Part shown: piece by piece, positions 42,574-47,902 of the stretch
How positions within the stretch are numbered: position 1 is the stretch's first letter
Layout of the letters: every line of letters begins with the position of its first letter
Assembly: GCA_001557505.1 (NCBI GenBank)
Contig: LSAX01000006.1
Coordinates: forward strand, 2,294,001-2,358,000
Direction: 5' to 3'
DNA: 64,000 nt
From: Reticulascus tulasneorum
Lineage: Eukaryota > Ascomycota > Sordariomycetes > Glomerellales > Reticulascaceae
The notes under the pieces: generated by a model
Told to the model about the DNA's origin: nothing
Seen by the model: only the letters and a program-made list of their open reading frames with translations
Database searches by the model: none
Translations under genes and position numbers: made by a program

Positions 42574-45500
42574 TCACTTGTCATTCTCATAATGCCACTG
42601 GTTGCGCACTTTATCCTCATCTTCCCACTCATCGTCTCCTTCATCATCATCAGCTACCACGCTCTTGAAAGCTGGCACAGTATCGTCGACATCAAGCAAC
42701 ACGATATTAAAACTCAAACTTGCCTCGTAGGAAACGTCTTTCTCTCGTTTTCCCACCGATTTGGAATGCAACTCACCCCATGCCCCAGTTTCAAGCAAAC
42801 CCAATTTTGCTGGTGGCTTTGATAGCAGCGAGGTTGCGTTGAGGCCCAGGTTTAAGTTCTTGCTGGAAACTTCAGCCACACCCATGATAGTGCCCCAATT
42901 CCCCGCAATTCCCACTTCCTTCATTTCATCGCGCCAGGCCTTGTAGAATGGCAAGCCCAGTTCCTTGTATGTCTTTGCTGCAATAGGAGTCGCAGGTGGA
43001 TTGAGCCCGGTGATTGACTTGAACGTTCGGGAGTCCACAAGCTGAACGCTTAGAATTTTTGAGCTGGCAACATCCCAAACACGTGGATCGTTTTGGTCCT
43101 TCTCGATATGCTGTACGATGTTGCCTCCAGCACCAACACCGAGAGCCACTGGTCGGGCACCAGGTTTAAGTGACAGCTGCAAGGTAAGTCCAGCAAAATC
43201 CCCCATGGATTCGTCTATGGAAAAGTTAGTTTCTTGCTAGGCCATACGGACATCCTGCAACTGGGCTACTAAAAGACAACTTGAGTACAACAGCCTCAAA
43301 GGGAATGTAGCTTACCGTCCTTGAGAACTCGATTAGAGTGCGAAAGTATTTGATATCTTGGCTGAATACCCAGTCTCTGCAATATCTCCAACTTTATCGA
43401 ACCGATAGTCCAACTCTGGCGAAATAACTCCATCTCAATCATTTCCACTTTTTCTTCATATCGGATGTGGACGAACATGGGTCCGCCACCTCCGCGAAGC
43501 CGTTCCACAAGATGGAAGGTTGATTCCTGAGATTTAATGGTCAATGTCAATGCATCAGTTGGACAAGACATGTAGCTACCTTCATGATGTCATAATCGTT
43601 TAACGTTCGCCCTGCGGTTCTTAGATCTTGCATGTTGAAAAGGGCCGGTTTACCTACCATCTTCCAACTGCTTTCCTGCAAAGATCAGTCGTTGCTGGTC
43701 TGGTGGAATACCTTCCTTGTCTTGAATTTTACTCTTGACATTGTCGATCGTGTCTGATGGGTGACACTCAAGAGTTATTGTCTTGCCGGTCTTAGTCTTC
43801 ACAAATATTTGCCCCGGGCCTTGGTACACAAGCACTCTCAACGGGGAACCCTGTTGAGCAGATTAGCATGAAAAAGTTCGGAATAAGCGTAGCTGCGACT
43901 GCTTACGTCAATAATTCCGTATGAAGTCAGAGTAGCATCGTCTAGTAATCGTGTACTGCCAAAATTGATCCGTTGGACAAGTGGGTCAACGTCCTCCTCG
44001 TCTTGTATCCGGTTCTTGACATCCCTAACAGTATCTGTGAGCTCGCAGTTGATCTTGATCCCCCGCCTCGAGCCGTCAAGACCAAATACATCCACATTGA
44101 TTACTTTCGATCCACCTTTGCTGTTTGCTCCTTTATTTGGATTATAAAGGGCTAGTATTTCGGATAACGGCTCATCGTCGAAGAGGTTCTGCGACACGTT
44201 TGCGTTGTTTTGCCTCCTACGCCGGGAGTTGTGGGCCTTAATAGAGAGCTTTGCGTTCGAAAAACCCGTGACTGCCTCAATTTCCCGGGCAAAGTCAACT
44301 AGGAGGCTGGAATCCGCTATGGCAATAAGAAATGGACGCCCATCCTCGAATTTCGGTAGATTAATACCATTAACATACTTGCCTTGAGTATGTATTTTGC
44401 AAACCCGTGTATCGCTGGGCGTGATGGAATCCGTCTAAAGAATCAGCTCACATTTGGGTATTTCAGAAGGCAAAGAGGACAGTGTTTGGAGAGGGTTATG
44501 GTTACATACCCAGATGACGTCTATCTCGGTTGCAGAGTCTTTAGTTCGGAAAGGATGTTCCGGTATTGATATGTTCCGCAGGAAACCCCGAACACTGTCA
44601 ACGTTCTCCCAAGACTTCATGGGAATAAGGACATCTTCGGCATTCCTAACAGGACATCGCACAGCGAGCGACCCACGAGATTCCGAAAAGTGGTGCTGAA
44701 CCACGGCAAGAACATCACTGAACTCGTCTTTTGTATCAAACTGTTGTAAAGGTTAGCCACGTCTATTTCGTTTGTTCATTCTGGTGCTCTTTACCGTGAA
44801 AGATGCCGACGAGTCAAGGCCTGGAGTGCTAACATTGAAAATGTGATGTTTTCGATACTGGTACAGTGTTTCGAGATTGAGGATACCTTGTAAGTCAAGA
44901 GCATGAGGTGCCTCAATGAGTAGGTCACCGAGGACTTTCTCCCGATTTTTGCTACGACTTTTGAGGTCTTTGAGGTGGATTTCACCGCCGACTTGAAGAC
45001 CCTCTTCTTTGGGTGTTTTTAGAACGTCGAAACACCGTATTCCTTGTGGAATCGGCCTCATGTACGATAATAGGCCGCCATACGACTCTACGCTCTTGCA
45101 CACATCTTTTATTGAGCCTGCGTGCATGCTTTCGGAGTCATACTCTGGAATAATCTGGAGTTGAAGACCACCAACGTCGTCGCGACCAGTAACCTGCCAC
45201 TCAATAGATGCTCCCACCAGTCTTGGCTCTGTCTGTTCTCCTGGCGCTCTGTCAGATTTGGTGTTGCTGTTCTCTGTCTTGAGCCTCGTTGAAGTTTCAA
45301 TACGGGGGGGGGCCAACTCAGTTGCTACAAACTGCTTGACTATTCCAGGACTAGCTGCGATGCCATCGAGCCACCTCTGTTCTGGCAGCAGAATGTAGTC
45401 TTGTTTCGGCGAAAGCGAGTTCATTCGTCGAAGAAGGCTGGCCATATTTCCATTTGACGTCTCACCTGAGATACCATTGACACCACCAAGAAAAGGGCGT

Positions 45501-47902
45501 ACAACAAACTTTTTATTCCCTTTGCATGTGAAGTTGATCCACATAGCTTCCATTTCTGCGAAGGACATGTGTAAGAAATCGTATATAAACGGGAAACACG
45601 GAGCCCAACCTACGATAGATCGGTAAGAATACACCGCCTTGGCAAACCATTGATGGAGGGAGGACAGCACTAAACGGTCGAATATCGAAAAGGGGAAATT
45701 TCCCCAGACCCGGAGGGAGATCGTAGGCGCTCTGCTCCTGTGGAACTTTAATGGTCCGCATAAAGTCAATGACTAGCTCCGGCTGTTCTGCACGACCGAC
45801 AGCCATTGATTCAGACGATACATCTCGGAAAGGTGTTGACTGGGATTCTACAGTTCCTGCCTCACCGCGATATAGCTTTGCTTCTAAGGGATCAGGGAAC
45901 GCCTTGCTGAAGAAGGAAGCAATTGGCTGATTGCAATTAATTTTCAGCCCTTTAATCATGTCGTAGCAAGGTCTCCCTGTAGTAACCTCTGCGGGGGCTG
46001 TGAAGACGTCCATCCATGTATGGTCTATGGCAGTGCTACGGCCACGAAATTGAAAGCCGTCCCCAACTTTGACACCTAATCTCTCATGTTAGAGGAATTC
46101 ACAGTAGATTCATGGCTAACTTACTAGGAACAGCAGCGGAAATGTGAGTATTCAACTGCCAAAGAGTTGTGTCCTTGGGAAGGCGAAGCACGTGCGAGAA
46201 TGGCGGGGAGCCGTATGTTTCTGGGTTACGTTTCTTTTGGAGGCCACCGATTCTGATTGTCATAGTTCTGGCTTGAGATTGAGTATCTGGCGGCACGGTT
46301 GCACCGCTGTCATTTCGGGCCATAGAAGATTCAGACCTCACACTGAGCAATCGAGAAGCCGAGTTGAGTGGCGTGAGAGAGGTTTCTCTTGTTACAAAGG
46401 ATGACCTCGGGGAGCTGACCGACTCGCTCACAGGACTGGATAGATCAGACTATTTGGTGGGTTAGCTGTGGCGGATCTCACGGAATATGAGGATTACTGA
46501 ATCGGAGCGCCACTGAGGAGACGATCGAATCGGAAGCGTTATTCTGTCGATTTTCATCGATGGGGACGCGATGTCCTCCATGCTCTTTGCGCCACGCTCT
46601 AAGATAGCGGCTGGCCCACCTAGAGATACGTATGTAATCGTTAACTAACAAATTCCATGCTTTCCGAGTGAAATAATTGCATGATGGCTTACTTGGCTGG
46701 CTTGATATGCCTCCCACAATTTCTTTGATAGCTGCCTCGACTAAGATATAATTCTGGCTATCTGGGCTGGCAAATCGGCAGATATCTCGATGGTGGGCAT
46801 TCAGAGGTAAGATAATCTCATTCGGAAGACCAAGCACCGCTGAATTCTCGGGCACTACCTGTTTTCTATTAGCTCGTGCTTTGGACTTGTTTATCATAGA
46901 TCATCATACCAGTGTGTTCAGAGGTCGCTCAATCTGCTGCTCGATGAAGGTCATTATCTTTAACGGCGTGGCACGGTGTATAAAGGACCGTGAGATCTCT
47001 GCAAGCAATTCAGAATCGCTGTTGAGATTGTACAAGAGCGATTTTCGAACACCTTGTCCTACGCTGGCGATATTGATGAGGTTGGAAAGAATGAGAGCCC
47101 AAGGTATTAACTCAGAGCCTCTGTGAGGAGTACCCATGAACACGATACCAATGGTTGATTCTAGAACATCTTGGTAAAACTGGCCAGTATCGTAGGCTAG
47201 AATGAGCGCCTGGATTGATCAGCATCCTTGTAGTTTTCTATAGAGGAGCGGTATGTTGAACCTTCTTGACGACAATGCCACCGAGACTATGAGCGACAAA
47301 AATTAGTGGTCGCCTCCTAGCCTGTTTTATTTGTTAGCCTGCATTCGGACTGCGAGTAAAGCAAATTGACCTCAAAGCTGCTTCGGAGCACTCTCAGACG
47401 GTTGAGGAGATCTCGGGCGAAATTTTCGACGCCAGCCTTGGACTTGCTAAACGCCAAACCAGAATCGTACCCGAAAGTCATAATTCTGGCATTTGGAAGG
47501 GCACACGGGAGGAAGTCTTCCAGCCAGAGATTTCCGGAGCCCTTGTCCGTCCATGTCTTCCTTGCTGTTCCATTTAAGCCGTGCACAGCGACAATACTAC
47601 AAGTATTAGCCTTCGAAGCTTTGCAGGCTGGGGGGAGGGGGCCTTACTCGACGATGAGGGATGAGGGGTCAACATGCAAATCAGGCGTAGGGTAAAGGAC
47701 AAACAATCCATGAGGCTCCGATTCAAACTCGTGTGGAGTGGCTAAAGTGCTTTCGAGGAGGTCGTCTCCAGTTTTCTACAGGCAGCTTCATCAGCGGCCG
47801 GATCAAGGCTGAGGACGGGTGCCAGTGCTAGAATACCTGGCGTTTACTGCTGTCTGCCACATTACGATCCTTTTTAGCGAATCTTTTGGCTATCGACTTC
47901 AT
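42574..47902 (-). CDS. Alpha/beta serine hydrolase fused to ubiquitin and ubiquitin-like domains
   Basis: Sixteen exons with fitting phases (47837-47902, 47648-47775, 47371-47596, 47262-47321, 46910-47209, 46693-46858, 46498-46619, 46125-46449, 45614-46075, 44795-45555, 44510-44740, 43907-44434, 43658-43850, 43580-43611, 43316-43526, 42574-43214) sum to 4,452 nt, 1,483 residues. Domains: basic start [13 protein letters not shown]; hydrolase about 65-300 with [13 protein letters not shown], nucleophile Ser152 in [24 protein letters not shown] and a late His in [11 protein letters not shown], as in the SesB/lipase-like heads of fungal NLR-type proteins; linker; middle region about 440-870 with [20 protein letters not shown] and [13 protein letters not shown]; ubiquitin-like fold about 1060-1135; near-canonical ubiquitin 1138-1213; third ubiquitin-like fold about 1215-1272; C-terminal domain with VWDVASSKI and [19 protein letters not shown]. 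There is no NB-ARC/NACHT. Function unknown; a signalling or death role is inferred from the hydrolase type and HET neighbours. Confidence 0.85.
43520..43816 (-). other. Embedded ubiquitin domain (exons 13-15)
   Basis: Within the fusion gene, residues about 1138-1213 read as ubiquitin. All seven lysines (6, 11, 27, 29, 33, 48, 63), Ile44, His68 and Val70 are present; changes include Met1 to Gly, Leu8 to Lys, Gln62 to Met and Leu71 to Glu. The usual end RLRGG is followed directly by GGPMFVH, so it is internal rather than a free C terminus. Two short introns interrupt it. Confidence 0.9.

What the first reader, a model, noticed from the sequence alone, without database searches (positions are those of the whole stretch)
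42574..47902. Serine hydrolase fused to a ubiquitin cassette in a 1,483-residue protein
The sequence shows a 16-exon gene whose phases fit. It joins an alpha/beta hydrolase head (Ser152 in VAHSLGG) to three consecutive ubiquitin-like modules and a further conserved C-terminal domain. In fungi, hydrolase heads of this type usually occur on NLR-like death or allorecognition proteins, and here the NB-ARC/repeat part is replaced by a ubiquitin array. I recall vaguely similar uncharacterised fungal proteins, so the architecture may be recurrent, but I know of no described function. It could be a self-tagging or ubiquitin-sensing death effector.
Basis: partly seen in the sequence, partly recalled or inferred. 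Interest (0 to 1): 0.88.

Follow-up and report, generated by a model that had tools for sequence, protein, structure and literature searches.

The report
Fungal lipase with built-in ubiquitin
This fungal gene appears to make one long protein that joins a fat-splitting type of enzyme, of the kind found on fungal immune-type proteins, to a scaffold related to bacterial proteins that carries a built-in ubiquitin tag; the same design recurs in other fungi, and its job is not known.

Summary
The minus-strand gene 47902-42574 gives one 16-exon frame; my model has 1,492 aa (reader: 1,483), with Ser152 in VAHSLGG. A collinear paralogue shares 11 of 15 introns and 24 database proteins have the same order, so the fusion is real and recurrent.

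The reading needed extending. The head is a lipase-type alpha/beta hydrolase like those of fungal NLRs: at 8 of 9 other loci examined in this genome a NACHT-type or NB-ARC domain lies with or beside it. What replaces the NLR part is a scaffold homologous to a ~330-aa bacterial family without Pfam match; the ubiquitin cassette sits in the linker between its two halves. Protist-like relatives carry ubiquitin at the same place, four with an intein-like Hint domain starting right after LRGG. The ubiquitin tail is better conserved than its body. A paralogue has a patatin instead of the hydrolase. Two HET genes flank the gene.

Best guess: a death or defence effector without an NTPase, switched by cleavage or recognition at the ubiquitin tail. 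Architecture and homology are shown; switch and function are inferred.

The parts
42574..47902 (-). Whole gene, 16 exons (47902-47837, 47775-47648, 47596-47371, 47321-47262, 47209-46910, 46858-46693, 46644-46482, 46435-46125, 46075-45614, 45555-44795, 44740-44510, 44434-43907, 43850-43658, 43611-43580, 43526-43316, 43214-42574), 1,492 aa plus stop
   Evidence: Splice model; paralogue shares 11 of 15 introns. Not checked by transcripts.
46601..47724 (-). Head: lipase/esterase-type alpha/beta hydrolase, about aa 40-330
47286..47288 (-). Codon of Ser152, putative nucleophile (VAHSLGG)
   Evidence: S in 32 of 34 heads with a residue there, 6 of 40 gapped. Glu250 (38 of 39) and His283 (39 of 39) as partners are my inference.
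46264..46600 (-). Linker, about aa 331-427, poorly conserved
   Evidence: Alignment with five relatives and the paralogue; introns after aa 316 and 370 not shared; the matching stretch of modelled relative P0021 has pLDDT under 50
44969..45902 (-). First half of the scaffold (aa 532-823), matching positions 18-173 of the bacterial family profile
   Evidence: hmmsearch with the bacterial profile: aa 532-713 E 6.1e-33, aa 736-823 E 0.0072 (small database)
43147..44968 (-). Insert with the ubiquitin cassette between the scaffold halves (about aa 824-1302)
   Evidence: The bacterial profile resumes at position 196; distance between two matched pieces of the halves 520 aa in the window, 185-520 aa in 26 members
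43907..44104 (-). Ubiquitin-like module before the ubiquitin, about aa 1069-1134, no diglycine tail
   Evidence: Six-frame PF00240 match at G000:C32:2337910-2338095, E 1.9e-7; 3 ubiquitin stretches in all
43488..43814 (-). Near-canonical ubiquitin, aa 1147-1222, ending RLRGG and followed by GG (spans introns 43657-43612 and 43579-43527)
   Evidence: 66 of 76 residues equal to the genome's own polyubiquitin; the 10 changes include L8K and L71E
43153..43478 (-). Ubiquitin-like module after the ubiquitin, about aa 1226-1300 (holds intron 43315-43215), no diglycine tail
   Evidence: 3 ubiquitin stretches in all; found at its own place in 8 of 34 proteins searched by phmmer, 3 more hits overlap the ubiquitin
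42820..43146 (-). Second half of the scaffold, about aa 1303-1411 (ALGVGAGG...), matching positions 196-300 of the bacterial profile
   Evidence: hmmsearch E 5.7e-16, envelope aa 1265-1411
48456..50264 (-). Neighbouring open frame with HET domain, upstream
   Evidence: PF06985 E 1.8e-31
39779..41119 (-). Neighbouring open frame with HET domain, downstream
   Evidence: PF06985 E 1.4e-23

Best explanation
A single intracellular protein of the fungal death/defence type that works like a lipase-headed NLR but has no nucleotide-binding domain. The head is a lipase/esterase-type hydrolase. The rest is a scaffold related to a bacterial protein family, whose two halves are kept apart by an inserted ubiquitin cassette. 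The near-canonical ubiquitin is the switch: cleavage by a deubiquitinase after LRLRGG (RLRGG here), or capture of that ubiquitin by a ubiquitin-binding partner, changes how the two scaffold halves hold together and so frees or activates the lipase, which then damages membranes. Shown by computation: one gene, the domain order, conserved catalytic-type residues, bacterial homology of both halves, position of the insert, conserved ubiquitin tail, another lipase head in a paralogue. Inferred: that the head is an active enzyme, that the scaffold holds it off, that the tail is cut or bound, and that the result is cell death.
For: Head type: relatives P0094, P0096, P0098 and P0109 share the hydrolase without the scaffold; three have NACHT/STAND-type Pfam domains and P0098 is named NB-ARC protein. 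In this genome, of 14 other loci given, 9 were examined and 8 have a NACHT-type or NB-ARC domain in the longest frame of the locus. PADLOC: the head region of the relative P0021 matches model DUF626_VIII of a candidate bacterial defence protein, E 4e-9. Head swap: the C34 paralogue (L021) has a patatin (E 5.2e-21) before the scaffold in its gene model. SesB-like and patatin lipases are named as N-terminal domains of fungal NLRs (passages of PMC12258605; PMC9815663; PMC12881547). Ubiquitin tail: positions 71-76 keep the canonical residue in 82% on average against 56% for 2-70; G75 in 28 of 30, G76 in 27 of 29, LRGG in 22 of 30; K48 in 15 of 30, K63 in 5 of 30. In the protist-like relatives P0095, P0153, P0155 and P0156 a Cys follows LRGG directly at the same place and a Hint-type domain follows (Pfam scan for P0095 and P0153, precomputed Pfam for P0155, motifs only for P0156). 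HET frames on both sides.
Against: No activity, cleavage or death phenotype has been tested. The window's ubiquitin carries L8K and L71E, which may weaken recognition by standard ubiquitin enzymes (inference). Of 40 hydrolase-headed members, 8 have both scaffold halves without a recognisable ubiquitin, so it is not indispensable; some may be gene-model errors. Of 30 tails, 8 lack LRGG, among them P0044, whose ubiquitin body is the closest to canonical. K27 is kept in 26 of 30. Rows were chosen by similarity to ubiquitin. The C3 and C34 scaffold genes of this genome have no ubiquitin match. The C15, C34 and C3 genes have no listed HET match within 50 kb, though only 150 of 347 HET candidates were scored. 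RING fingers in some relatives would equally fit a ligase-type role.
Confidence: 0.42

Rival explanations
1. Ubiquitin-dispensing or self-tagging protein: the embedded ubiquitin is activated (after processing to a free RGG end, or by transfer as in BIL/BUBL proteins) and the head-scaffold-ubiquitin fragment becomes attached to targets, delivering the lipase to them.
For: Protist-like relatives have Ub-Hint-Ub at the same place. A Tetrahymena Hint domain, BIL2, between two ubiquitin-like domains is reported to conjugate one of them to other proteins (passages of PMC8616854). RING fingers over Pfam's cut-off in relatives P0127, P0142 and P0153. Tail conservation.
Against: No Hint match in the window protein. 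L71E lies next to the tail read by the activating enzyme (inference). The tail is followed by another module and half a scaffold, so it must first be cut.
Confidence: 0.16
2. Ubiquitin mimic used as a docking tag: the cassette is not cut but recruits ubiquitin-binding proteins (proteasome, Cdc48, autophagy receptors), which control abundance or place of the lipase.
For: I44, H68 and V70 of the binding patch are unchanged in the window; among the listed Foldseek matches of the modelled relative P0021 are linear ubiquitin chains.
Against: L8 of the same patch is Lys in the window. A docking tag does not explain why the tail is better kept than the body.
Confidence: 0.13
3. Built-in cofactor: the ubiquitin binds within the same protein and switches the lipase on allosterically, as free ubiquitin does for the bacterial patatin-type phospholipase ExoU.
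For: A phospholipase that needs ubiquitin as activator is known (ExoU; passages of PMC12871566). Here lipase heads of two kinds, hydrolase and patatin, sit on scaffolds of which many carry ubiquitin.
Against: ExoU activation depends on ubiquitin's Leu8 patch (same passages), and the window has L8K. The patatin-headed paralogue itself shows no ubiquitin match. Does not explain the kept tail.
Confidence: 0.1
4. Ordinary lipid-remodelling serine hydrolase with an incidental ubiquitin insertion and no immune role.
For: Function of the scaffold in bacteria is unknown; 8 of 40 hydrolase-headed members have both halves and no recognisable ubiquitin.
Against: Same order in 26 of 26 members that have all four parts; hydrolase-headed scaffolds form one group on the scaffold tree (100/95); catalytic-type residues and tail kept; head type shared with NLRs.
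Confidence: 0.15
5. Two adjacent genes wrongly joined: a hydrolase gene and a scaffold-ubiquitin gene.
For: The free gene finder preferred a start at 46323; two linker-side introns are not shared with the paralogue.
Against: 24 database proteins plus a paralogue show the same fusion; no stop in the linker frame.
Confidence: 0.04

Closest known systems
Fungal NLR (STAND) proteins with SesB-like or patatin N-terminal lipase domain
   Same: Same type of hydrolase head at the N-terminus; a patatin takes its place in a paralogue
   Different: No NACHT or NB-ARC domain and no repeats by Pfam in the window protein; scaffold with ubiquitin instead. PMC9815663 reports a ubiquitin-clan (Crinkler) domain among NLR N-termini (passages), which is another arrangement.
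Uncharacterised fungal entries named 'Ubiquitin-like domain-containing protein', 'Polyubiquitin' or 'Protein SERAC1', e.g. P0012, P0014, P0017, P0025
   Same: Same four parts in the same order; the window protein is a further member
   Different: Differences of sequence and of linker; P0127 adds a RING finger
BUBL / BIL polyubiquitin-like proteins of ciliates (passages of PMC8616854)
   Same: Ubiquitin-like domain next to further ubiquitin-like domains; protist-like relatives of this scaffold have Ub-Hint-Ub
   Different: No Hint domain in the window protein; the passages read mention no scaffold or lipase
ExoU, a patatin-type phospholipase activated by ubiquitin (passages of PMC12871566)
   Same: Lipase activity coupled to ubiquitin
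   Different: Ubiquitin is a separate cofactor there, part of the chain here; different lipase fold from the window's head
Bacterial ~330-aa family (named hypothetical protein or 'Integral membrane protein'), often behind an XRE-type HTH gene
   Same: Both halves of the fungal scaffold match its profile
   Different: The bacterial members aligned are contiguous, without lipase; HTH-type gene upstream in 47 of 69 loci with over 450 bases upstream; such a partner was not looked for in the fungus

Membership tests
Fungal NLR (STAND receptor) | N-terminal effector domain of a known NLR type | tested here: met
   Similar hydrolase head with or beside NACHT-type or NB-ARC domains at 8 of 9 other loci examined
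Fungal NLR (STAND receptor) | NACHT or NB-ARC NTPase domain | tested here: not met
   Pfam scan of the 1,485-aa draft at E up to 1 lists 7 families, none an NTPase
Fungal NLR (STAND receptor) | C-terminal superstructure-forming repeats | tested here: not met
   None among the 7 families; at the C34 paralogue an ankyrin frame lies downstream
DUF676 / SesB-like lipase | Nucleophile-elbow serine and alpha/beta hydrolase fold | tested here: met
DUF676 / SesB-like lipase | Lipase or esterase activity | not testable with these tools
   Needs an enzyme assay
Ubiquitin | Beta-grasp fold and high sequence identity | tested here: met
Ubiquitin | C-terminal diglycine | tested here: met
   RLRGG followed by GG; internal, not terminal
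Ubiquitin | Conjugation to other proteins | not testable with these tools
   Needs biochemistry
BUBL (Ub-BIL-Ub) | Hint/BIL domain between ubiquitin-like domains | tested here: not met
   No Hint match in the window protein; Hint-type matches in P0153 and P0095
Bacterial scaffold family | Both conserved halves match the family profile | tested here: met
   E 6.1e-33 and 5.7e-16
Bacterial scaffold family | Contiguous ~330-aa protein | tested here: not met
   Matched pieces of the halves 520 aa apart in the window

The most novel reading that the evidence does not exclude
A class of eukaryotic tripwire receptors: a two-half scaffold of bacterial type with a decoy ubiquitin in its loop. When a foreign or deregulated deubiquitinase cuts after LRLRGG, the scaffold opens and releases an exchangeable lipase effector, which kills the cell. 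The protist-like Hint versions would be the self-cutting counterpart.
Probability: 0.15. Interest if true: 0.93.

Novelty: new variant of a known kind. Interest (0 to 1): 0.72.

Why it matters
It links three things that I did not find put together in print (searches in an open-licence library that lacks most subscription journals): NLR-type lipase heads, a bacterial protein family without Pfam match, and an internal ubiquitin whose tail is better kept than its body. If the switch idea holds, fungi would have a death-effector class controlled by ubiquitin cleavage instead of nucleotide binding, and protist-like relatives with an intein-like domain would offer a self-processing version to compare. 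It also gives a testable entry to a bacterial family with 478 encoding stretches in GTDB genomes; no Pfam match in the three members scanned and no NCBIfam match in two.

Tried and rejected
Rejected: mis-joined genes. Rejected: the ubiquitin as a separate polyubiquitin gene, since scaffold halves lie on both sides. Doubted: 'integral membrane protein' as a description of the bacterial family; the best 19-residue hydropathy mean is under 1.0 in 5 of 5 checked.

Led nowhere: plasmid megablast with the gene. Sequence searches of the PDB gave ubiquitin and ubiquitin-derived chains among the 60 shown of 223, or nothing. PADLOC's capH match of one bacterial HTH partner (E 2.1e-10) may be general HTH similarity. 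PHROGs gave one match at E 0.053 in 3 proteins. The scaffold tree does not settle the direction or number of transfers: bacterial rows are one side of a branch in 66% of bootstrap trees, fungal hydrolase rows in 100%, protist-like rows in 96%. Counts use the 154 proteins fetched plus window and paralogue; 32 of the 152 hits were not listed, nor 1,447 of the 1,567. One search used a chosen 34 of the first 120. The odds of the docking and dispensing rivals were lowered to make room for the new rival; the main odds stand.
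Full report
Gene model. On the minus strand from 47902 to 42574 a 16-exon model gives 1,492 aa without internal stop; exon 9 was corrected by homology to end at 45614, and a 46-nt intron restores the ubiquitin. A simple gene finder trained on 12 long frames of the window preferred a start inside the gene when free (43.1) over the forced full length (40.9); a start at 47925 scores 40.0. The paralogue on contig C15 (L009), also with a forced start, is one 18-exon gene of 1,313 aa by the same method. 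It is 40% identical over 1,273 residues and shares 11 of 15 window introns in place and phase.

Recurrence. A whole-protein search found 152 proteins at E<=1e-3 among 7,990 scored; 120 were listed, many of them polyubiquitins or other ubiquitin proteins. A profile search with four scaffold sequences found 54. Of 156 sequences (154 fetched plus window and paralogue), 65 carry a central piece of the scaffold, 40 of these the hydrolase, 35 a ubiquitin, 44 the C-terminal part, and 26 all four, in the order hydrolase, scaffold, ubiquitin, C-terminal part in 26 of 26. By the names they include Dactylonectria, Bombardia, Fusarium, Zopfia, Dichotomopilus, Hyaloscypha, Exophiala, Cenococcum and Xylaria. 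Eight hydrolase-headed members have both scaffold parts but no recognisable ubiquitin.

Scaffold. The parts between head and ubiquitin and after it have no Pfam match. A third profile search, led by the metagenome protein P0153, found 1,567 proteins; most of the 120 listed are about 330 aa long and several are named as bacterial. A profile of 17 such sequences matches the window at aa 532-713 (E 6.1e-33), 736-823 (0.0072) and 1265-1411 (5.7e-16), with model positions 18-173 and then 196-300 (E-values for a small database). The ubiquitin cassette therefore lies in the linker of the bacterial family. In GTDB contigs 478 of 497 pattern matches encode relatives; 80 loci were kept, from Gammaproteobacteria, Caldilineaceae, Poribacteria, Acidobacteria and others. 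Of 72 loci with the gene called, 69 have over 450 bases upstream, and 47 of these have a gene of one BLAST cluster there on the same strand, one member of which is an HTH_31 protein by Pfam. No Pfam match in 3 bacterial members, no NCBIfam or PADLOC match in 2, and no relative among PDB sequences.

Other architectures. In this genome C34 has a patatin before the scaffold in its gene model, with a RING-like (under Pfam's cut-offs) and ankyrin frame directly downstream whose junction is unresolved. C3 has the scaffold alone, without Pfam match. P0127 adds a RING finger after the C-terminal half, P0142 is scaffold plus RING, P0136 scaffold plus ubiquitin. P0095, P0153, P0155 and P0156, from metagenomes, have ubiquitin, then a Cys right after LRGG and a Hint-type stretch ending in VHN, then a second ubiquitin-like domain and the C-terminal half. 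P0158-P0160, listed from a eukaryote transcriptome set, have ubiquitin without Hint; for P0160 the record gives taxid 136419, Cercozoa. These seven form one group on the tree, which is why I call them protist-like. A Tetrahymena Hint domain between ubiquitin-like domains is reported to conjugate one of them to other proteins (passages of PMC8616854). A bacterial patatin-type phospholipase, ExoU, needs ubiquitin as activator (passages of PMC12871566), which is the basis of one rival.

Tree. On 257 scaffold columns and 70 chosen rows, fungal hydrolase-headed rows form one group (100/95), protist-like rows one group (95/82), and bacterial rows one side of a branch in 66% of bootstrap trees. That the scaffold came from bacteria is inferred from the wide bacterial spread, not shown by the tree.

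Neighbourhood. HET-domain frames lie on both sides; the HET matches are 1.4 and 1.6 kb from the gene. With 150 to 347 HET matches in 42.8 Mb, uniform placement would give this at about 0.8 to 4.3 in 10,000 positions, but HET genes may cluster, and the other three scaffold genes have no listed HET match within 50 kb. Suggestive only.

Judgement. Architecture, recurrence, head type, homology to bacterial proteins and insertion point are supported by the calls above. That the protein is a death or defence effector is likely by analogy (about 0.6). That the ubiquitin tail works as the switch is my best single mechanism (about 0.4). I rate it a new variant of a known kind: NLR-like effector logic with a different, ubiquitin-bearing scaffold.

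Noticed in passing
window 39779-41119 and 48456-50264 (-): Two HET-domain frames flank the gene; a third, weak HET match (21.8 bits, cut-off 22.5) at 1710-2939 (-)
   Followed up: partly
window 22794-23750 (+): Homogentisate 1,2-dioxygenase frame
   Followed up: no
L021 (G000:C34:2317500-2326500): Patatin before the same scaffold, with a RING-like and ankyrin frame directly downstream; the junction holds an in-frame stop and no clean intron was found
   Followed up: partly
L020 (G000:C3:1311500-1320500): AAA-ATPase-like gene (by eye, no family search) upstream of a scaffold-only gene
   Followed up: no
L042-L121: Bacterial gene pair: HTH-type gene followed by the ~330-aa scaffold gene in 47 of 69 loci with enough upstream sequence; the same pair on a Euzebya plasmid
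   Followed up: partly
L122 (KX853510.1, phage Rctr197k): A phage carries a relative of the bacterial scaffold gene, annotated in overlapping pieces as putative membrane protein
   Followed up: no
P0095, P0153, P0155, P0156: Metagenome proteins with ubiquitin, Hint-type stretch and a second ubiquitin-like domain inserted in the same scaffold; P0153 begins with a RING finger
   Followed up: partly
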